Below, one piece after another: positions 21,468 to 64,000 of a stretch of 64,000 nt of DNA; positions within the stretch are counted from its first letter, which is position 1, and each line of letters begins with the position of its first letter. The translations under genes were made by a program, and so were the position numbers. Location: NCBI RefSeq assembly GCF_000186865.1, contig NW_008705561.1:62001-126000 (forward strand). Reading direction: 5' to 3'. The DNA comes from Aureococcus anophagefferens (Eukaryota; Sar; Pelagophyceae; Pelagomonadales; Pelagomonadaceae). Below the pieces are notes generated by a model. That model was not told where the DNA came from. It made no database searches and worked only from the letters and a program-made list of their open reading frames with translations.

Positions 21468-23378
21468 ATGCGCACGACGCCATCGCGGCCGCAGCCGGCG
21501 GCGCCGGCCTCCACAGCAACACCGTCCGCCGCGGACTGCGCGTACGGCGCGGTGCCCGGCGTCGAACTACGACGACCGCGCCCGCGGCCCTGGCACTGCC
21601 TGCGGCGGCGCCACGGCGTGCTCGCCTTCGCGGCGCTGGCCGTGGCGCTGAGCTGCGCGCGCTTCGGGCGCGCGCTGGCGGCCTTCGTGTCGCGGCGAAG
21701 GACCTGCGACTTCGACCGCCCGGACGTCGCGGTCGTCGGCGGCGGCGCGGCCGGCAGCGTCGTCGCCGCGCGGCTCGCGGCGGAGCGGCCCGGCTGGTGC
21801 GTGCTGGTGTTGGAAGCCGGCGGTCCCTACCGCGGCAACTCGCACGAGCTCGGCGCCGTCTGGACCGAGGCGCGCGTCGCGCCGCCGAGCGGCGACGAGA
21901 CCCCTTCGTCGCCGCTCGACGTGCCGCGGCTCTGGTCCGACGTGGGCCGCGTGGCCGCGCTCCACTGGCCCATCGTCAACGGCGTCGTCGCGCGCGTTTT
22001 AGGCGGCAGCGGCGCGCACAACGCCATGCTCTACGTCCGCGCGACGCCGCGGGACGTCGAGGCGTGGAACGCGACGGGCTGGACGTGGCCCTCCGTCGAA
22101 AAGCGCTACGCGGCGCTCGAGCGCCTCGTCGGCGGCCGCAACGGCACGTCCGCGCGGGGTTTCCGCGGCCCCGTCGCGACGCGCCGCGCGCCGTGCCTCG
22201 CGTCGGACGCGCTCGCGGCCGCGTGGCTTGCGGCGTGCGGCGCCGCGGGCCTCCGCCGCGTCGACGACTTCAACGCGGACCCGACGACGCGCTACGCGAA
22301 CGTCGCCGGGCCCTACCATTTCAACATCGACGAGCGCGGCCGCCGCGCGTCGGCCTACGCGGCGCTCCTCGAGCCCGCGCTGGGGCTCGCGAACCTGAAA
22401 GTCGTCGCCGGAGCGACGGCGCGCCGCGTGCTCGTCGACGACGACCGGCGCGCCGCGGGCGTCGAGTACGCGGCCCCCGGCGGCGGCGTCGTCGCGGCGA
22501 AGGCCCGCCGGGCCGTCGTCCTCGCCGCCGGCGCGCTGAACACGCCGCGGCTCCTGCTCGCGTCGGGCCTCGGCGGCCCGAAAGTCGGCGAGGGCCTCCA
22601 CGACCACCCGGCCGTTGCGCTCGAGCTCGAGCTGAGGAGCGACGCCTTCTGGCGCGACCCGGGCCCGCTGGCGGCCTTCTTCGGCGCCCGGGGCGGCGAC
22701 TCGCTCTGGGCGTCGCCGGGCACGTCCGTCGGCGCGTTCCTCCGGTCTTCCGCGTGCGACCCGCGCGAGCCCGCGGACCTCCAGCTCACGCTCTTCTCGC
22801 CGGGCCAGAGCGAGCCCCACGTCGACGAGCTCGGCCGCGGCGTCTGGACGGCGCGGAACACGGCGCTGGTCACCGTCGCGCTCCTGCGGCCCGAGGCGCG
22901 GCACCGCGTCGTCCTCGACGCCGCGGACCCCTACGCGCCGCCGATCATCCGGCGCGGGCCGCGGAACGCGTCCTGGTACGCGGCGCCCCGCTGCGAGGGC
23001 TGCCGGCCCGACACGGCCTGGGTCACGAGCGCCGACGCCGCCGCGCTCCTCGAGGGCGTCGACTTCCTCGGGCGGCTCGCGAGGACGGAGCCCCTCGCGG
23101 CGGCCGTCGCCTTCGTCGACGCGCCGCCGGAGCGGGGCGCCGACGCGCGCCACGCCTGGATCCGCGCGCGGTCGCTCGCGAATTCGCACTGGGTCGGCAC
23201 GGCGGCCATGGGCGACGACGACGCCGCCGTCGTCGACGCGGACCTCAACGTCCGCGGCGTGGCCGGCCTCGTCGTCGCCGACGCGTCCGCGATCCCGCGC
23301 ATCCCCAACGGCAACGTCCACTCGACGGTCCTCGTCTTCGCGTCGAGGGCCGCGGACACGGTCCTTAAGGAGAGGTGA
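21468..23378 (+). CDS. GMC-family FAD oxidoreductase
   Basis: A 636-residue single-exon protein. A hydrophobic segment (GVLAFAALAVALSCARF, near residue 50) may anchor the N-terminus. DVAVVGGGAAGSVVAARLA near residue 86 is the Rossmann ADP-binding motif, followed by VLVLEAGG. RVLGGSGAHNAMLYVRAT near residue 178 is GMC signature 1. AAGALNTPRLLLASGLGG fits signature 2. The C-terminus has NSHWVGTAAMG, GLVVADASAIPRIPNGN and VHSTVLVFASRAAD, including the catalytic His region. The family oxidises alcohols (choline, glucose, others) or acts as lyase; the substrate cannot be read here. The start at 21468 is the only good ATG. Confidence 0.9.
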   Translation: MRTTPSRPQPAAPASTATPSAADCAYGAVPGVELRRPRPRPWHCLRRRHGVLAFAALAVALSCARFGRALAAFVSRRRTCDFDRPDVAVVGGGAAGSVVAARLAAERPGWCVLVLEAGGPYRGNSHELGAVWTEARVAPPSGDETPSSPLDVPRLWSDVGRVAALHWPIVNGVVARVLGGSGAHNAMLYVRATPRDVEAWNATGWTWPSVEKRYAALERLVGGRNGTSARGFRGPVATRRAPCLASDALAAAWLAACGAAGLRRVDDFNADPTTRYANVAGPYHFNIDERGRRASAYAALLEPALGLANLKVVAGATARRVLVDDDRRAAGVEYAAPGGGVVAAKARRAVVLAAGALNTPRLLLASGLGGPKVGEGLHDHPAVALELELRSDAFWRDPGPLAAFFGARGGDSLWASPGTSVGAFLRSSACDPREPADLQLTLFSPGQSEPHVDELGRGVWTARNTALVTVALLRPEARHRVVLDAADPYAPPIIRRGPRNASWYAAPRCEGCRPDTAWVTSADAAALLEGVDFLGRLARTEPLAAAVAFVDAPPERGADARHAWIRARSLANSHWVGTAAMGDDDAAVVDADLNVRGVAGLVVADASAIPRIPNGNVHSTVLVFASRAADTVLKER

Positions 23379-51790: not shown

Positions 51791-52834
51791 CTACTTGACC
51801 TTGGCGAAGGTCGCGTCGTTGGCGATGCCGCAGGCGTTCTTGCCCATCTGGACGCGGATGTAGCCCTGGTAGCCCCAGGACGTGCCCCAGGAGTTGCGCA
51901 CGTTCCAGACGCACTTGTCCTTGAGGCCCTTGCCGCAGGCCTTGGCGTCGCCCGTGTAGCCCGTGTAGCCGACGACCTGGACGCAGTGGTCGAGGGCGTT
52001 GGCCGCGTGGGAGCCGCACTGGAGGTTCGTCATGACGCCCTTGGTGTAGGTCTGCCACGCGCCCGCGTTGACGCAGATCGAGGCCGGGCCGTGGCTCGCG
52101 AGCGCGGCGGCCATCTTGTCCTCGTCCTGGTCGTTGCACTTGCCCTTCTTGCACTCGGGGACGACGTAGGAGAAGGACTCGACGTCGCCGCCGGCGGTCT
52201 CGAACTTTTTGCAGCGGCCCGTGTTGCCCGACGTGCCGCTCTTGTAGGGGTAGGCGGACTCGAGCGCCATGCCGCCGGCCTTCTCGACGTAGGCGTAGGC
52301 CGTCTCCGTGTTGCCGCCGTTGCAGCCCTGGTCGACCTTGTCGCACGACACGATCTGCTGCGGGGCGAAGACGAGCGGGTCGTTGCCCGCGAGCACCCAC
52401 TCGGACTCGATCTGCTCCGTCGCGGAGAAGGCCCAGCACGAGCCGCACTGGCCCTGGTCCTTGACGTCGCTGACGACGCCGGACTGCTTCGTGCGCCAGT
52501 CGAGGCTGCCCGGCGCGGCGAAGCCCTCGGGCGCCGCGTAGACGTCCTCCGCGAGCACCTGCTCCGAGGGCACGTAGTTGAGGTACTGGGCCTTGAACTC
52601 AGCCTCCGTGAGGTCCATGAACTGGGTCACGCCGAACTCGGCGTCGTCCTCGTCGACGCGCTGGGCATTGAGGGCCTCGGTCTTGCGCAGGTTGGCCGAG
52701 AAGATCGTGAAGCGCTCGGCCTCGGCCTCCGTGCTGTTGTAGGACTTGACGTAGTCGGACTTGAAGAGCTCGAAGAGCGACTCGTCCGTCAGCGCGGCGG
52801 CGGGCACGAGGAGGAGGGCAGCCTTGAGCATCAT
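51791..52834 (-). CDS. Papain-like cysteine protease (C1A) with inhibitory propeptide
   Basis: A 347-residue protein. The ATG at 52834 gives signal peptide MMLKAALLLVPAAALT. The I29-type propeptide has FELFKSDYVKSYNS, then ERFTIFSANLRKTEALN and FMDLTEAEF. Mature enzyme: SLDWRTKQSGVVSDVKDQGQ followed by CGSCWAFS with the catalytic Cys near 132, CNGGN, catalytic His in ALDHCVQVVGY near 281, and Asn in NSWGTSWGYQGYIRV near 314. All four active-site residues (Gln, Cys, His, Asn) are present. Expected to be lysosomal/vacuolar or secreted. Its codons are less extreme in GC than its neighbours', as in many highly expressed genes here. Confidence 0.95.
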   Translation of the reverse strand: MMLKAALLLVPAAALTDESLFELFKSDYVKSYNSTEAEAERFTIFSANLRKTEALNAQRVDEDDAEFGVTQFMDLTEAEFKAQYLNYVPSEQVLAEDVYAAPEGFAAPGSLDWRTKQSGVVSDVKDQGQCGSCWAFSATEQIESEWVLAGNDPLVFAPQQIVSCDKVDQGCNGGNTETAYAYVEKAGGMALESAYPYKSGTSGNTGRCKKFETAGGDVESFSYVVPECKKGKCNDQDEDKMAAALASHGPASICVNAGAWQTYTKGVMTNLQCGSHAANALDHCVQVVGYTGYTGDAKACGKGLKDKCVWNVRNSWGTSWGYQGYIRVQMGKNACGIANDATFAKVK

Positions 52835-52934
52835 GATCTGACAGCGAGTTTGTTTGGTGGCGCTGGGCAGCCTTCTCAATACACGCATTTTGACAATTGC
52901 ATTTTGAATTCATTCAACCGGTCGCCCCCAAACC

Positions 52935-57524: not shown

Positions 57525-58273
57525 GCCTCGCCCTCGCTTGGCCGGGGGTCCGCGCCCGATCATGCGGCATTCCGCGCGCGCGCCGCGCGCCGCGCACCTC
57601 TCCGCGCCAGCACGTGGTCCGGTGCAGGCGAGGGCGGAGGCCACCCTTCTCGATGTGGCGCGTCAGACGAGCATGTAGTCTCTTTGTCGCGTCTCGGAGG
57701 AGCTGCTTCTGACTCAGGCTCGGACTCCGTTCGGAAGACGAGGCCCTAAAAGAACGCGCGGTCGGTCGACGGAGCCCAGGTTTGCAGCGTGGACATGCTG
57801 AAGGCGCGGGCTTCACGACGAGGCCGACGTCGCGCCGCTCGCCCCACACCCCCGACGAGAGCAGGATGCCGGCGAGCGCGTGCTTGACGGTGCCCCAGAT
57901 CTGCCAGTGCCACTGGCAGTCTATGCTGCCATTATCATACCTGCGGGCGATTATCGACACGTCGACGACGCCGCCTGGCTACCCCGATGGAAAGTTTCAG
58001 TGGCGTTCCGAAAATAGACAGCGGCCGCCGCCGGCGCGGCCTCCGCTACGGAGCTGCTGCGGGGTCTCGGCGATGACACGTCGACGACACGCAGCCTGAG
58101 AGCGGCGAGGGTACCCGCAGCACTGCTGGACGCCTCCGCGAACGCTGCGCCAGACCGCCAGGCGTCGCGCCGCGCGAGCGACGAGGAGGCTACGAGGACA
58201 CGCCAACGGCCAGCCCGTCCTGTTCTGTTTGATCCACAAGCAGTGCTCCCACTCCACGGATCAATGCCATATA
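57525..58273. other. 5' flank of the retroelement, no clear gene
   Basis: 749 bp. The patch at 57880-58030 is AT-richer. I searched by eye for a copy of the sequence downstream of 63628 (an LTR pair) and for a primer-binding site and found neither convincingly. No gag-like frame with a CCHC zinc knuckle was recognised here. Confidence 0.4.
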
Positions 58274-61200
58274 ATGGCCAAGCTCGCTCGCGACTGGAAC
58301 GACACCGACACCGGCCGCGGAAAGGGCCGAGGCCGCGGCCGCGGCCGCGGCAGCAAGGGCCGCGGCGCCGGCGGCTCCCTCGCCGAGGCGTCCCGCGCCC
58401 TCGTGGCTTCGGTCGCCGCGTCGCTCCAGGGCGACGGCACCGCGCTGCCCGACGACCGCTCGGCGCTCACCGACGACCGTTCGATCGGCGACTACAGCCG
58501 GGCCTACGCGGCCGTCGCGGACTGCCTCGCCAACGCCGCCCGCGCGAGCGGCCCCGCGGAGCTCAGCGCCGACGAGGCGCACGCGCTCGCGGCGTGCGGC
58601 AGCCTCCCGCCGTGCCCCGAGGGGTTCGAGCTCAGCTTCGTCGACGGCGGATCGATGGCCCACGCGCTCAAGACCGCGAAGCACGGCCCGCGGCGCGAGC
58701 CGTCGACGCACTGGGCCTCTCCCACAGCCCTGCGCGACGGCGGAGACCGCGCCCACGCCAACCACGGCGTCTACAGCTCCGACTTGGTCACGCCCGACGG
58801 CACGCGCATCCCGGTCGAACGCGACAACCACTTCCCGACCTTCGCCGTCTCCATCTTCAGCGAGGGCCAGCTCGAGGAGCAGGGCTACCGGTTCCACACG
58901 ACGGAGTCCGCCCGGGGCCTCTCCAAGTTCATGATCACGCCCGCGGGCGACGAGGTCAAGCTCATGACCTGGCGGAACCTCAAGATGGTCTACGTCCGGG
59001 CCGTCGCGCCCCAGCCGGCGCCCGAGGGCCTCAGCGCCGCGGCCGTCTCCGAGCCGCCCTGGCCCGAACCACAGCCGCGCGTCGAGGCCATGGAGATCTT
59101 CGCCGGGTCCGGGTCCATGTCGCGCGCGCTGCGGGACGGCGGCGTCTCCATCGTCGCCACCTGCGAGAACGACCCGCGCAAGGCGGGCGCCCTCGCGAAC
59201 AACCTTCCCAGCGTCCACAACTACGGCGACATCCACGACGACTCCATCGTGGGCCACGTCTGGAACCCGCGGAGCGTCAGCGCCATCGCCGCCGGCGTCG
59301 AATGCCAGGACTACAGCAAGGCCGGCGCCCGGCGCGGCCTCGGAGGGCCCAAACGCCGCACGCTCGAACGCTTCGCGCACGTCGTGCGCTGCATCGGCCC
59401 GCACCTGCTGCTCGTCGAGAACGTGTGGCCGTTCGTCGTCATGCTCGGCCTGGCCTACCTCGTGTCGCTCCTCTCCGCCCCCAAGCGGAGCGGCGAGTCG
59501 CGATACATCCTGCGGCTCCCCACCGGCGTCGAGGAGGCGGAGCTCAGCAAGAGCTCGCTGCACGGCCCGGTCTACCGCGACCGCATGCTCGCGTACTTCG
59601 AGCGCGACGACGTCTCACCGCTGCTGCCGCCCCCCGCGCCGCTCATCGCGCCCAAGATCGCGGAGCGACGGACGCTCGTCTCGTGCCTGCGGGCCGCAGA
59701 CGAGGTCCCCGACGACGCGTTCTGGGAAGGACGCTTCGAGCGCCTCTCCACGCCGCGCCGCGCCTACAGCGGGCGCGAGGACAGCCCGCTGGTCGTCGCT
59801 CGCCTCCACTACGACCCGGAGTCGGCCGTGCGCGAGGGGTCCGTCGTCAGACTCCGCGGCGACGGCCGGCGCTGGGTCGTGCTCACCGCCGACGTGACAC
59901 TGCACGTCATCGCCTACGACCGGCGCCACCCGACGCAACGCCGCGGCGTGCCCCGCGAGCGCGTCTCCGAGCACGTCCACTACGCCTACGACGTCTTCGA
60001 CACGACCAAGCTCCTGTCGCCGCGCAAGGACGGCCAGCCGCCGTACGGAGGCACCATGCTCCTCGAGCGGCCGTCCCACCCGGGACGCGCGTCCCGCGTG
60101 CTCCCCGACGAGGCGGCCCGCGCCATGGGCATCGACATCACGGGCATCGCCGAGCACGACGTCCAGTACGTCGTCGGCGACGGCGTCACGGACGTCTACA
60201 AGATGCAGGCCGCGGCCCGCATCATGGAGCGCGCGACGATGCTACACAAGGTCCTCCACGAACGGTCCCACGCGGCGTCGGTCGCCGCGCCGCTCCTGGC
60301 GGCCCCCGCGTCCCCGCCGCTGCGGCACCCCACGGCCGGGCCAAACGCGCCGCCGCTGATGGCGCGCGGCCTCGGCCGGGAAGCGAACGTCGTCCACGCT
60401 GCGATTGGGCACCCGGCCCAGGACCGCTTCCGCGACACGGTCAAGGGGCTGCGCATCAAAGTCGACGGTACCGTCGACTGCGCCGTCTGCAAGATCTCTC
60501 GCATGGTCAAGAGCGGGTCCGCGCGCAAGTCGCGGACCCAGAACCCGCCGGCGGTTCGGCGGCCACCGCCGCCGCCTCATCCGCCCCCGGCACCTCCGGG
60601 CGGCCAGCCCGCGAAGCAGCGGCCGCCGACGCTGCGCCTCGACCTCTTCGGAGCCCACAGCGACATCCCGTCGCGCACGCGGTCCCAGTACTTTCTCACG
60701 GCCACGCTCAACACGAACCCGCCCCACCGCGTCGGCGTCGGCCTCCGCCTCAAGAGCGAGGCCGTCGGCGAGCCCGGCGGCTTCTCCGGCCTCCGCATGA
60801 TCTACAACGCGTACGCCGCGAAGGGCATCCGCGTGCGCATCGTCGAGCACGACGACGGCGGCGAGTTCGTGGGCAACAAGGCCAGCGCGCTCTACGCGCA
60901 GCTCGGCGTCGCGAGCCGGCCCAGACCCTCGGAGCGCCACTGCGAGGCCGCAGAGCGCACGAACCGGGCCGTCTACGGCCTCACACGGGCAATGATGCAC
61001 GCGGGCTCCGTCCCGGACAACCTCTGGGAGGACGCCGCGTGCCACGCCGTCGATTGTTTGAATCTGCACTTTCACGGCGACATCAACGCCCACTACGCGG
61101 CCTTCCAGGAGGACGTCGACCTGTCGACGTTCTACCCCTTCTACGCGCACGTCGCGTTCTTCGACATGCACCGGTCCGAGCGCTTCCGCACTTCCGGAGC

Positions 61201-63628
61201 CCTCGGCCGGTACCTCGGCGCGGCGCGAAACTACGGCTTCGGCGCCATCCGCGTCCAGGTCGGACGTCACGTCCGAATCGTGTCGAGCCACCACTACGTG
61301 GCCGCGCCCGACGTCGAGCTCGACGTCGCCCGCATGGCGCCCATGATTCCGCCGCCGCTCCCGCCGACCCACGCGGCGCCGCACTTCAGCTACCTGCCGC
61401 TGGACACCCTGCCGAACTCGCAGCCCGACACGGACGGCGGCGACCACACGGCGCCCGCAGCCGACGAAGCCGCGGCTCCGGGGGAGCTGCGCTCTCCGCT
61501 CGCGGGGGAGCACGGCCCCGCGCTCGCGGGGGAGCCCGCCGACGGCAGTCCGCCTCCGGGGGAGCCGCCCGACGACGAGCCCCCGCGGCGAAGCCGCAAA
61601 CGCCGCACGCACCTCGACATGGGCAGCGACATCGGCGCGTCGCACCGGAACTGGCGCGACTCCGCCGCCTCAAGCGCCGTGGCCGGCCGCGTCAGCGGCC
61701 TCGCGCTCCTCCCGGTGATGGCGCTCGCCCTCATCGCGTCAGCCGGGCACGAGATGTCGCCGCTCATGCCGTCCCTGTGCAGCTACGCCATGCCCACGGT
61801 GCTCTCCTTCGCGGCCGAGCACGCGGCGCACGGCCTCGCCGCCAGCGCCGTGCCGCGCACGACGGTCTACGATCCCGTCGACACGGAGCTCCACGCTCCC
61901 GACATGCGGCACCTCCACGAGCCGCGCCGCCATGCGCCGCCCCCGACCTACCCCGGCGACCACACCATCGACGGCGACATGACGCTCCGTCAGGCCCTGC
62001 AAGGGCCGGACCGCGGCAAATGGGTGCCCGCGTTCCACAAGGAGCGTCTCGACCTCGCAGAGACGTTCCGGGACGGCGCCGCCGCGCTCACACGGGTCGC
62101 TCTCTCAGAGCTGCCGGCCAACGCGCGCATCTACGACTCGCTGTGCGTGTGCCGCGTCAAACGCGACGGGCGCTACAAAGCCCGGTGGTGCGCCAACGGC
62201 GCGCGCAAGGCCGGCGAACTCCGCGACCCCGGCAGCTCGTCTCCGACCTGCCTGCCCAGCACCCTCTTCATGGCTCTCGCCATGGCGGCACAGCACAGCC
62301 TGGCCGTCTCGCAGTTCGACATCACAGGCGCGTACATGCTCGCTCCGCCGACGAGCCGCTTCTACCTCCAGTACCCCATCGGGTTCGACGACTACCTCCG
62401 AGCCGCCGGCCTGCCCACTTTCGACCCCAACAAGTACGTCCTGCGCGCCGACAAGAACATCTACGGCATGGAGGACGCGGGCCGAGCCTGGTTCGAGCTC
62501 CTCTCGTACCAGGTGCTCGACGTCATGGGGTTCCAGCGGCACCCCGTCGACCGCTGCCTGTTCTGCAAGGCGTTCAATCAGGGCGTCGTCTACGTGCTCG
62601 CGTACGTCGACGACCTCCTCGTCATCGGCACGCCACGCCACCAGGCCGGCGTTATCGACGACCTCAAAGCCGCGTTTCCCATGACCGAGGGCGGCGAGGA
62701 CTACCTCGGGCTGCAGTTCCAAGTCGAGCCCGGGCGCGTCCGCGTCCATCAGGCCGAGTATGCCTCAAAGATCTGCGCCAAGTTCGGCTTCGCCCGCTCG
62801 TCCTCCGTGAAGACACCGTTGTCGACGGACTGGAACGCAGGAAACACCGAGCAGCCCTCGGGCGGCCGGCCGGGCCGCATCACCCGGGAGAACATGGACA
62901 GCGCCCTCGGCGCCATCGGCTACCTGGCCACGCGCACGATGCCATGGCTCAGCTTCGCGTTCGGAGTCCTGAGCACGGTCGCCGGAGCCACCCCGGCGTT
63001 CCCGGACCACCCGACGCCCGGCGCTCTGTCAGCACTCGGGCGCGTCTTCCGCTACGTCAACTCCCACGCCCAGCTCGGGCTCACCTACACCCGCTGCGCC
63101 GAGTTCGCACTCGACGGCTACATGGACGCCTCGCACGGACGCGAGATCCACCGCACGGCGTCCGGCGTCTGCCGCTCGCGCTCCGGCGGCTACATCTTCG
63201 CATGCGGCGCGTCCGTCTGCGCGTGGTCGTCGGTCCAGTACGCGACAGCGATCTCGACCTTCGAGGCCGAGCTGTACGCCCTGGTCGTGCTCGTCCGCGT
63301 GCTCCTGAGCATGCGCTCTCTCGCATCCTTCATGCTCAAGCGCAGCCTCCGGCCGTCGCACGTCTACTGCGACAACGAGTCGGCAATACTCTTCCTTCGC
63401 GGACGCGACCTTTCCGCCCGGGCGCGGCACATTCGGTGCCAGCTCGGCTTCCTCTACGACGCACTCGACTCCGGCGAGCTCGTCCTCCATCACGTCCCAT
63501 CGAAGTTCAACCCGGCGAACACTCTCACTGCCGCCGAGGACGAGGATCGCTTCCGGCGCTCGCTCGCAATGATCGCCGGGCTCCGCGTCAACGACAAGAA
63601 CGAGCTCGTCGACCTTCCTCTCGCCTAG
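58274..63628 (+). CDS. Ty1/copia-type polyprotein carrying a cytosine-5 DNA methyltransferase
   Basis: A 1784-residue uninterrupted frame; the ATG at 58274 precedes a basic RG-rich tract. Residues about 115-265 are protease-like (FVDGGSMAHAL, VTPDGTRIPV, FSEGQLEEQGYRFHT). Residues about 270-655 are a C5 methyltransferase: motif I MEIFAGSGSMSRAL, motif IV GVECQDYSKAG (Cys344, with Glu where Pro is usual), motif VI LLVENVWPF (Glu382), YRDRM (VIII-like), RVLPDEAARAMG (IX-like) and YVVGDGVTDVY (X-like). Then a zinc H..GHP...CAVC (708-740) and integrase (LDLFGAH, EHDDGGEF, CEAAERTNR). Reverse transcriptase has DITGAYMLAPP and YVDD (1444-1447). RNase H has DGYMDAS, TFEAELYAL and VYCDNESAI. The long open frame suggests recent activity. 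No gag is seen. Confidence 0.9.
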   Translation: MAKLARDWNDTDTGRGKGRGRGRGRGSKGRGAGGSLAEASRALVASVAASLQGDGTALPDDRSALTDDRSIGDYSRAYAAVADCLANAARASGPAELSADEAHALAACGSLPPCPEGFELSFVDGGSMAHALKTAKHGPRREPSTHWASPTALRDGGDRAHANHGVYSSDLVTPDGTRIPVERDNHFPTFAVSIFSEGQLEEQGYRFHTTESARGLSKFMITPAGDEVKLMTWRNLKMVYVRAVAPQPAPEGLSAAAVSEPPWPEPQPRVEAMEIFAGSGSMSRALRDGGVSIVATCENDPRKAGALANNLPSVHNYGDIHDDSIVGHVWNPRSVSAIAAGVECQDYSKAGARRGLGGPKRRTLERFAHVVRCIGPHLLLVENVWPFVVMLGLAYLVSLLSAPKRSGESRYILRLPTGVEEAELSKSSLHGPVYRDRMLAYFERDDVSPLLPPPAPLIAPKIAERRTLVSCLRAADEVPDDAFWEGRFERLSTPRRAYSGREDSPLVVARLHYDPESAVREGSVVRLRGDGRRWVVLTADVTLHVIAYDRRHPTQRRGVPRERVSEHVHYAYDVFDTTKLLSPRKDGQPPYGGTMLLERPSHPGRASRVLPDEAARAMGIDITGIAEHDVQYVVGDGVTDVYKMQAAARIMERATMLHKVLHERSHAASVAAPLLAAPASPPLRHPTAGPNAPPLMARGLGREANVVHAAIGHPAQDRFRDTVKGLRIKVDGTVDCAVCKISRMVKSGSARKSRTQNPPAVRRPPPPPHPPPAPPGGQPAKQRPPTLRLDLFGAHSDIPSRTRSQYFLTATLNTNPPHRVGVGLRLKSEAVGEPGGFSGLRMIYNAYAAKGIRVRIVEHDDGGEFVGNKASALYAQLGVASRPRPSERHCEAAERTNRAVYGLTRAMMHAGSVPDNLWEDAACHAVDCLNLHFHGDINAHYAAFQEDVDLSTFYPFYAHVAFFDMHRSERFRTSGALGRYLGAARNYGFGAIRVQVGRHVRIVSSHHYVAAPDVELDVARMAPMIPPPLPPTHAAPHFSYLPLDTLPNSQPDTDGGDHTAPAADEAAAPGELRSPLAGEHGPALAGEPADGSPPPGEPPDDEPPRRSRKRRTHLDMGSDIGASHRNWRDSAASSAVAGRVSGLALLPVMALALIASAGHEMSPLMPSLCSYAMPTVLSFAAEHAAHGLAASAVPRTTVYDPVDTELHAPDMRHLHEPRRHAPPPTYPGDHTIDGDMTLRQALQGPDRGKWVPAFHKERLDLAETFRDGAAALTRVALSELPANARIYDSLCVCRVKRDGRYKARWCANGARKAGELRDPGSSSPTCLPSTLFMALAMAAQHSLAVSQFDITGAYMLAPPTSRFYLQYPIGFDDYLRAAGLPTFDPNKYVLRADKNIYGMEDAGRAWFELLSYQVLDVMGFQRHPVDRCLFCKAFNQGVVYVLAYVDDLLVIGTPRHQAGVIDDLKAAFPMTEGGEDYLGLQFQVEPGRVRVHQAEYASKICAKFGFARSSSVKTPLSTDWNAGNTEQPSGGRPGRITRENMDSALGAIGYLATRTMPWLSFAFGVLSTVAGATPAFPDHPTPGALSALGRVFRYVNSHAQLGLTYTRCAEFALDGYMDASHGREIHRTASGVCRSRSGGYIFACGASVCAWSSVQYATAISTFEAELYALVVLVRVLLSMRSLASFMLKRSLRPSHVYCDNESAILFLRGRDLSARARHIRCQLGFLYDALDSGELVLHHVPSKFNPANTLTAAEDEDRFRRSLAMIAGLRVNDKNELVDLPLA

Positions 63629-63690
63629 GCCTGGCGGCCCGCGACCCTACCGAGCCGACCTGGCCAACGGGCCGCTCCTCCCGCCCGCCT

Positions 63691-63870
63691 CCCTGCACGC
63701 CGCGGCGTGCACAACACTCCCGCGCCTGAGGCCGCGGGCGACCCCGCGGGGTCGCCCGCCGGAGCCCGCGCCTACTTCCTCCCTGCACGCCGCGGCGTGC
63801 ACAACACTCCCGCGCCTGAGGCCGCGGGCGACCCCGCGGGGTCGCCCGCCGGAGCCCGCGCCTACTTCCT
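63691..63870 (+). repeat. Perfect 90-bp tandem duplication rich in palindromes
   Basis: 63691-63780 and 63781-63870 are identical. Each copy holds an 18-nt palindrome TGCACGCCGCGGCGTGCA (63694-63711, 63784-63801) and a 26-nt perfect palindrome (63734-63759, 63824-63849) centred on CCCCGCGGGG. It starts 62 bp after the polyprotein stop. Confidence 0.95.
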
Positions 63871-63936
63871 CCCTACGCCCGGAACAGCGACAACCCTGCG
63901 GGGTTCTACGCCGGTTCCCGCTCTTCAGGCTCAACA

Positions 63937-63959
63937 CGGCGTGCCCGCAGGGCACGCCG
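63937..63959 (+). repeat. Perfect 10-bp-stem hairpin
   Basis: CGGCGTGCCC, loop GCA, GGGCACGCCG. Part of the same palindrome-rich 3' region; possibly a terminator-like or packaging structure of the retroelement. Confidence 0.75.
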
Positions 63960-64000
63960 CACCGCCGTTCCTCCCCGGCGCGGTGCCGTGGCACCCGCCC

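What the first reader, a model, noticed from the sequence alone, without database searches (positions are those of the whole stretch)
59081..60250. Cytosine-5 DNA methyltransferase embedded in a copia polyprotein
Seen: in one open frame, C5-methyltransferase motifs I, IV, VI, VIII, IX and X occur in order between a copia protease and the zinc/integrase domain, with the catalytic Cys (344) and the ENV Glu (382) intact. Known: host-like methyltransferases captured by retrotransposons have been reported in a few eukaryotes (dinoflagellates and a charophyte, from memory), and this would be a separate lineage and architecture. Inference: an element that methylates DNA could silence, mark or protect its own copies, or act in trans on the host. 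The Pro-to-Glu change in motif IV (ECQ for PCQ) is unusual and may change kinetics or mean loss of activity.
Basis: partly seen in the sequence, partly recalled or inferred. Interest (0 to 1): 0.88.

Follow-up and report, generated by a model that had tools for sequence, protein, structure and literature searches.

The report
Copia retrotransposon carrying a cytosine methyltransferase
In what looks like the brown-tide alga Aureococcus anophagefferens, a jumping gene of the copia type carries, inside its own replication polyprotein, an enzyme domain of the kind that methylates DNA, and distant relatives of the element keep such a domain in the same place.

Summary
Observation confirmed. ORF 58229-63628 is a copia Pol (RVT_2, 2.8e-27) with a C5-methyltransferase (PF00145, 2.2e-13) between protease and integrase; motifs I-X are in order and the model matches M.HhaI end to end. 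Host by protein matches: Aureococcus anophagefferens.

The window copy is 5'-truncated. Sister copies show gag, 54-bp LTRs and 5-bp target duplications. A 33%-identical element (C4) and a metagenomic copia ORF (P0011) keep the domain ahead of integrase with an intact PC motif. A second copia lineage (C49/C29/C31) has a very different C5-methyltransferase in the same slot; a DIRS-like ORF carries a relative of the first. The one usable pair (C49/C29) gives dN/dS 0.073, near its integrase (0.059). The window's own close pair shows no constraint.

Class: bacterial Dcm-like by search rank, not tree. Retrotransposon-borne DNMTs are in print for LINE, DIRS and Gypsy (PMC5890265), Dcm-bearing Gypsy/DIRS even for stramenopiles (PMC6338049, passage). 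A described copia case was not found in eight searches. Activity of the window copy is doubtful (ECQ for PCQ); function is inferred.

The parts
58201..64000 (+). 5'-truncated copia element; it continues past the window to C1:126142 (window position 64142), where its 3' LTR ends
   Evidence: Left break shared with the matches in copies C6 and C2; 3' LTR at L006:8089-8142
58229..63628 (+). pol open reading frame, 1799 aa, starting inside the end of gag
   Evidence: gag reads on in frame in copy C6 (coordinates)
58235..58267 (+). remnant of gag zinc knuckle (HKQCSHSTDQC)
   Evidence: motif reading; similar motif in C4 gag
58631..58672 (+). aspartic protease active-site region (DGG in place of D-S/T-G)
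   Evidence: motif reading; no Pfam score
59078..60244 (+). C5-cytosine methyltransferase domain, about 389 aa
   Evidence: PF00145, alignment A1, predicted structure and fold match
59288..59317 (+). motif IV with catalytic Cys (aa 359), AAGVECQDYS, Glu in place of Pro
   Evidence: ECQ in 5 of 5 readable family members
59405..59434 (+). motif VI, ENV (Glu aa 397)
59564..59599 (+). motif VIII (RxR)
60068..60133 (+). motif IX region
60164..60196 (+). motif X (VVGDGVTDV; VGNAI in the C4 relative)
60389..60490 (+). HHCC zinc-binding module before integrase
   Evidence: motif reading
60629..60967 (+). integrase core with D, D, E residues
   Evidence: motif reading; the C4 relative scores rve at 0.019, below cut-off
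62108..62821 (+). reverse transcriptase (RVT_2), FDITGAYM and YVDDLL motifs
63110..63529 (+). RNase H
   Evidence: motif reading; RVT_3 E 0.045, below cut-off
63688..63867 (+). two identical 90-bp tandem units in the 3' untranslated part, matched at other copies too

Best explanation
It is a 5'-truncated copy of an LTR retrotransposon of the Ty1/copia superfamily whose Pol polyprotein contains a full-length, bacterial-Dcm-like C5-cytosine methyltransferase between protease and integrase. Shown: the anatomy, the predicted fold, the sister copies with gag, short LTRs and target duplications, and the recurrence of a C5-methyltransferase in the same slot in other copia lineages. Inferred: the domain is made as part of Gag-Pol, is released or stays attached in the virus-like particle beside reverse transcriptase and integrase, and methylates the new element DNA before or at integration, so that the copy arrives already marked. 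That mark would either hide the cDNA from host responses to unmethylated DNA or set the insert into a tolerated, quiet state. This particular copy is not autonomous and may be enzymatically weak or dead. The family, not this copy, is the functional unit.
For: PF00145 and RVT_2 in one frame. Order PR - methyltransferase - HHCC - IN also in C4; methyltransferase - HHCC - IN - RVT_2 in P0011, whose record begins after the protease active site. Catalytic Cys, Glu and RxR invariant across window, C4 and P0011 (the DIRS-like L009 keeps them too, but in PSCK and LEIT contexts). Methyltransferase about as conserved as integrase between lineages: window-C4 33.5 vs 32.3%, window-P0011 30.5 vs 27.8%, C4-P0011 31.1 vs 34.8%. 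Structural match to M.HhaI. Second lineage: C49/C29 dN/dS 0.073 over 503 methyltransferase codons, 0.059 for 163 HHCC/IN codons, 0.254 for 134 codons on the protease side, in an element whose terminal repeats are 99.7% identical over 330 bp. Family LTRs and 5-bp target duplications in C6 and C2. SymbioDIRS-type retrotransposon DNMTs can methylate CG de novo (PMC5890265, abstract and discussion).
Against: Motif IV Pro is Glu in 5 of 5 readable members of the window family. The only close pair of that family shows 7 nonsynonymous, 0 synonymous changes. RT is more conserved than the methyltransferase between window and P0011 (42.9 vs 30.5%). No full-length copy of the window family was found in this assembly: of 66 DNA matches listed (37 candidates scored, a lower bound) the window copy is the only one spanning the whole methyltransferase. 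No activity, expression or methylation data were available. The window and C4 elements show no CpG depletion (o/e 1.33 and 1.29; GpC 1.12 and 1.02), so no footprint of heavy CG methylation. The tested SymbioLINE-Dnmt did not methylate DNA in yeast (PMC5890265 discussion).
Confidence: 0.55

Rival explanations
1. The domain in the window family is a catalytically dead or near-dead remnant, or a non-catalytic nucleic-acid-binding part of the particle; activity survives only in other lineages.
For: ECQ instead of PCQ in 5 of 5 readable family members; 7:0 nonsynonymous to synonymous between window and C50; in this assembly only truncated, deleted or fragmentary copies among the matches listed.
Against: The other catalytic motifs are intact and the change is shared rather than scattered; the alga's own DNMT5-type protein also lacks Pro before the motif IV Cys (TSC), so Pro is not universal; the frame is open over 1799 codons.
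Confidence: 0.22
2. The domain methylates the element's RNA rather than its DNA.
For: It is translated next to the packaged genomic RNA (inference); DNMT2, an RNA enzyme, is among the nearer PDB relatives; de Mendoza et al. raise this for SymbioLINE-Dnmt, which did not methylate DNA in yeast (PMC5890265 discussion).
Against: Bacterial DNA enzymes M.HhaI and M.HaeIII score better than DNMT2; the domain has a sizeable region between motifs VIII and IX, where DNA target recognition sits in M.HhaI-type enzymes (recalled).
Confidence: 0.1
3. The enzyme acts mainly in trans on the host genome, altering or jamming host methylation.
For: The host is reported to have DNMT5-linked methylation (passage in PMC9998398), so a marked genome exists to interfere with.
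Against: Position inside Pol points to particle-bound action; low copy number (14 RVT_2 and 14 PF00145 matches in 49 Mb, lower bounds).
Confidence: 0.08
4. Assembly chimera or contamination: a bacterial methyltransferase joined to a retrotransposon by error.
For: Dcm-like class by search rank.
Against: Same junctions in proteins of other sequencing projects of the species (protease side in JL722 and SO694, integrase side in JL722 and AURANDRAFT), in the 33%-identical C4 element and in metagenomic P0011; host-like GC (0.713 vs 0.729) and GC3 0.92.
Confidence: 0.01

Closest known systems
KnitGypsy-Dnmt3 of Klebsormidium nitens (PMC5890265)
   Same: C5-methyltransferase inside the Pol polyprotein of an LTR-type retrotransposon; catalytic residues kept; purifying selection reported there (Ka/Ks below 0.2)
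   Different: Gypsy, not copia; DNMT3 class, whereas here the best-scoring known enzymes are bacterial M.HhaI/M.HaeIII; charophyte host
SymbioDIRS-Dnmt3 and SymbioLINE-Dnmt of Symbiodinium (PMC5890265)
   Same: C5-methyltransferase domains carried by retrotransposons; the DIRS form has it in Pol, as the DIRS-like L009 here
   Different: DIRS and LINE elements; that paper says the abundant Symbiodinium copia elements lack any DNMT domain; whether the orphan SymbioLINE enzyme is kin to the present family was not tested, no sequence was to hand
Dam- and Dcm-encoding Ty3/Gypsy and DIRS retrotransposons, mentioned in PMC6338049 (passage)
   Same: Names stramenopiles among the groups with methylase-encoding retrotransposons, so the host group alone is not new
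   Different: Gypsy and DIRS clades; the word copia does not occur in that paper's main text
DNMT3 in LTR Copia and DIRS elements, one sentence in PMC12344493 (2025)
   Same: Names LTR Copia as a carrier of DNMTs
   Different: Cites the 2018 paper, which describes Gypsy, DIRS and LINE; no stramenopile, no architecture in the section read; DNMT3 class
Dcm-type bacterial enzymes (M.HhaI, M.HaeIII; TIGR00675)
   Same: Motif order and fold
   Different: Sequence match mainly in the first 120-180 residues; the rest was matched only by retroelement relatives or A. anophagefferens and metagenome pieces in the searches made; E for P before the catalytic Cys
DIRS elements with Dam-type adenine methyltransferases
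   Same: A retroelement carrying a DNA methyltransferase
   Different: Structurally unrelated adenine enzymes, as stated in PMC5890265

Membership tests
Ty1/copia LTR retrotransposon | RVT_2 reverse transcriptase | tested here: met
   E 2.8e-27
Ty1/copia LTR retrotransposon | Order PR - IN - RT - RH in one frame | tested here: met
   Motif positions; PR, IN and RH by motif reading only, Pfam below cut-off or silent
Ty1/copia LTR retrotransposon | Flanking LTRs with short target-site duplication | tested here: inconclusive
   Window copy has only the 3' LTR, 89 bp past the window end, and no 5' LTR in C1:118001-120200. Met in sister copies C6 (54 bp, TSD CGGCC) and C2 (54 bp, TSD CTATG), read by eye
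Ty1/copia LTR retrotransposon | gag | tested here: not met
   No gag match in the window copy; present in C6, 96% identical to the gag part of P0003, hence truncation of this copy, not of the family
C5-cytosine methyltransferase (PF00145) | Profile match over curated cut-off | tested here: met
   50.8 bits against 22
C5-cytosine methyltransferase (PF00145) | Motif IV Pro-Cys | tested here: not met
   ECQ in the window family; FPCQ and FPCK in relatives C4 and P0011. The Cys itself is kept
C5-cytosine methyltransferase (PF00145) | ENV Glu, RxR of motif VIII, motifs IX and X in order | tested here: met
C5-cytosine methyltransferase (PF00145) | Fold | tested here: met
C5-cytosine methyltransferase (PF00145) | Methyl transfer to cytosine | not testable with these tools
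   needs expression
DNMT3 class, as in published retrotransposon DNMTs | Closest to DNMT3 among known classes | tested here: inconclusive
   Profile search lists HhaI, HaeIII, DNMT2, DNMT1 and no chain named DNMT3 among 52 sequences at E<=1; no tree against DNMT3 references was built
DNMT5 or other host enzyme of this alga | Detectable relation to host DNMT5-type (L016) or Dcm-type (L011) proteins | tested here: inconclusive
   No group A blastp match at E<=0.1 to either; an ORF of unknown nature, L010, matches the motif I region at E 2.5e-5

The most novel reading that the evidence does not exclude
A Dcm-like methyltransferase is a standing Pol module of copia elements in pelagophytes and related plankton, exchanged between copia-type and DIRS-like elements and acquired at least twice into the same protease/integrase slot, where it methylates the element's own cDNA before integration, so that a retrotransposon brings its own epigenetic mark to each insertion.
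Probability: 0.3. Interest if true: 0.82.

Novelty: new variant of a known kind. Interest (0 to 1): 0.58.

Why it matters
Retrotransposons that carry cytosine methyltransferases were described in detail for LINE, DIRS and Gypsy elements of dinoflagellates and a charophyte. This adds the copia superfamily and an enzyme that scores closest to bacterial ones, with two very different enzymes in the same Pol slot and a kindred enzyme in a DIRS-like ORF of the same genome. Repeated presence and retention argues that methylating something during retrotransposition is useful to the element. The genome is small (49 Mb) and holds an element of the second lineage with nearly identical LTRs, so bisulfite or nanopore mapping of element copies is feasible.

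Tried and rejected
Host capture (DNMT5 or DNMT3 origin): not supported by the PDB profile ranking or by blastp to L016 and L011, though absence from a list is not exclusion and L010 gives a short match. No DNMT tree was built, because only about 120 residues align across classes.

Single origin of all methyltransferases in the copia elements: the two groups (A: window, C4, P0011, DIRS-like L009; B: C49/C41, C29, C31) do not match by profile comparison (hhalign Prob 0.6, E 0.094). The RT tree (12 rows; C4 not included because its RT reads N, C63 not included) separates window/P0011 from C49/C35/C31/C41b, yet holding all six as one clade is not rejected (p-AU 0.213). One ancient gain therefore remains possible.

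Viral origin: three scans of viral contigs gave no confirmed relative. Phage matches to the C4 domain (236 records, 10 listed, at most 49% covered, none 80%) and plasmid matches to the window domain (6 records, 5 listed, at most 43%) are generic Dcm matches.

Long LTRs at the window copy: the only repeat of 60 bp or more in C1:118001-128000 was the 90-bp tandem; the family LTR proved to be 54 bp.

Structure of group B: model useless, pLDDT 31.6. Only one pair could be used for methyltransferase dN/dS, computed by my own Nei-Gojobori script without a significance test. The RT and IN ratios of C31 with C63 and C41b (0.157, 0.088) are of another element pair.

Low-GC contigs (C29, C31, C35, C41, C49) as contamination: not excluded. 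C49 carries a 331-bp stretch of the window family at 88% identity, and C41 and C29 carry only 50-64-bp pieces, which weakly favours the same genome. C41 and C49 copies are 99.9-100% identical and may be one locus assembled twice; I count them once.

Full report
What is there. The window lies in a 49-Mb assembly without a name (86 contigs; C1:62001-126000). The nearest proteins in the database are hypothetical proteins of Aureococcus anophagefferens strains, so I take that as the host. The + strand ORF 58229-63628 is a copia Pol polyprotein: protease region, methyltransferase, HHCC module, integrase, RVT_2 reverse transcriptase, RNase H. Pfam gives statistical support to the methyltransferase (2.2e-13) and the reverse transcriptase (2.8e-27). 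The other domains were read from motifs and scored nothing or below cut-off.

This copy. The window copy starts at 58201, inside the end of gag. It has no gag upstream by tblastn and no 5' LTR in the fetched flank. Two internally deleted copies, C6 and C2, explain the family: 54-bp LTRs (CAGAGG...GATCTG), 5-bp target duplications (CGGCC in C6, CTATG in C2, read by eye), and in C6 a gag (96% identical to that of P0003 over 240 aa) whose frame runs on into the pol start. The window copy's 3' LTR lies 89 bases beyond the window end (L006:8089-8142). Of 66 DNA matches listed for the genome, only the window copy covers the whole methyltransferase; C50 covers window 58530-59586. C6 joins window 58505 to 62556 and C2 joins 58352 to 63455, so both lack methyltransferase and integrase and part or all of RT.

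Relatives with the domain in the same place. C4 (L008) has gag, zinc knuckle, protease, methyltransferase (FPCQ, YENV), HHCC and integrase in one frame; its RT region reads N. It matches the window ORF at 29.8% over 937 aa. P0011, a 1729-aa metagenomic ORF with RVT_2 whose record starts after the protease active site, carries FPCK and FENV. C4 is also in strain JL721 (P0010, 92% identical). A second copia lineage (C49, with near-identical C41; C29; C31) has a longer C5-methyltransferase (PF00145 4.7e-11, 2.6e-11 and 3.9e-8 for C49, C29 and C31; motif VI reads EMTP) ahead of HHCC and integrase; a protease motif lies upstream in the same frame in C49 (LLILDSGA) and in another frame in C31. The C49 element is flanked by repeats 99.7% identical over 330 bp; the left one abuts an N-run, so 330 bp is a minimum. 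Finally, a DIRS-like ORF at the end of contig C49 (L009) carries a group A relative aligned over its whole length (22% identity, E 1.6e-13). Its RT scores only 0.17 and its recombinase was recognised by eye.

Loci without the domain. C35 goes, by eye, from protease-like sequence to the part after integrase. C41b, 89.6% identical to C31 in the integrase part, shows neither protease nor methyltransferase in the roughly 270 aa ahead of HHCC; further upstream was not examined. C6, C2 and C15 are deletion copies. Among the copia loci read, I found none with both protease and integrase but no methyltransferase; the searches score only the best candidates, and the loci with both in view are four (window, C4, C49, C31).

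Selection. C49 against C29, Nei-Gojobori: methyltransferase 503 codons dN 0.027, dS 0.368, ratio 0.073; HHCC/IN 163 codons 0.059; protease side 134 codons 0.254. Between deep lineages of group A the methyltransferase is as conserved as integrase (33.5 vs 32.3%, 30.5 vs 27.8%, 31.1 vs 34.8%) but less than RT where RT could be compared (window-P0011, 42.9%). Window and C50 differ by 7 nonsynonymous and 0 synonymous changes, 5 of them in the methyltransferase, which shows no constraint on those two copies.

Mechanism. By position the enzyme should be made with Pol and travel with reverse transcriptase and integrase. I take pre-integration methylation of the element's own DNA as most likely (inference). 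The published test of a DNMT3-type retrotransposon enzyme showed de novo CG methylation, while the tested SymbioLINE enzyme did not methylate DNA in yeast (PMC5890265, abstract and discussion). CpG statistics do not settle it: group B elements, C35 and L009 are CpG-depleted (0.60-0.77, TpG and CpA 1.05-1.37), while window and C4 elements are not (1.33, 1.29; window background 1.41).

Literature. I read sections 6, 9 and 11 of PMC5890265, section 5 of PMC12344493, and passages of PMC6338049, PMC9998398, PMC3145265, PMC2806351, PMC10449503 and PMC12477816. PMC5890265 states that Symbiodinium copia elements lack any DNMT domain. PMC6338049 says that Dam- and Dcm-encoding Gypsy and DIRS retrotransposons occur in stramenopiles among others. 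PMC12344493 mentions DNMT3 in 'LTR Copia and DIRS' elements in one sentence, citing the 2018 paper. Eight searches gave no listed paper whose title, abstract start or read passages describe a copia-borne C5-methyltransferase in Aureococcus or another stramenopile; most listed papers were not opened, and subscription papers are not covered.

Verdict. It is a new variant of a known kind: new element superfamily, apparently different enzyme class, and present in several lineages of one genome. Activity of the window copy itself is doubtful; the relatives C4 and P0011 are the better candidates for an active enzyme.

Noticed in passing
L009:4837-9999 (C49:126528-131690): DIRS-like ORF (RT/RNase H-like, then a C5-methyltransferase-like domain with PSCK and LEIT in place of PCQ and ENV, then a tyrosine-recombinase-like part) cut by the contig end.
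   Followed up: partly
L045 (C2:2853501-2857800) and L046 (C6:1126501-1131500): Deletion derivatives of the window family with short 54-bp LTRs that begin CA and end TG (inverted CAGA/TCTG) and 5-bp target duplications.
   Followed up: yes
C49:87935-98816 (L043, L018, L041, L028, L044): Second-lineage copia element with terminal repeats 99.7% identical over 330 bp, hence probably recent, and an open frame holding a C5-methyltransferase; near-identical sequence on contig C41.
   Followed up: partly
C49, C29, C31, C35 elements and L009: CpG o/e 0.60-0.77 against 1.41 in the window background, with TpG and CpA at 1.05-1.37; these elements are also far lower in GC than the window (0.44-0.55 vs 0.73).
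   Followed up: partly
L011 (C5:41324-42289): Stand-alone full-length Dcm-like protein (PF00145 E 1.6e-51) with an intact motif IV, separate from the DNMT5-type protein at C2:916769.
   Followed up: no
L010:4903-6525 (C5:524903-526525): ORF with a degenerate methyltransferase-like stretch (EIFAGSG, about 38% over about 72 aa to the window domain), nature unknown.
   Followed up: no
L042 (C41:19600-22600): Copia copy related to C31 in which a coiled-coil or gag-like stretch precedes HHCC/integrase in place of methyltransferase.
   Followed up: partly
L006:8450-10000 (C1, just past the window): ORF that reads like an SRP54-type GTPase directly downstream of the element's 3' LTR (by eye, not searched).
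   Followed up: no
window 21468-23378 (+) and 51791-52888 (-): GMC oxidoreductase and papain-family protease with I29 propeptide (Pfam).
   Followed up: no
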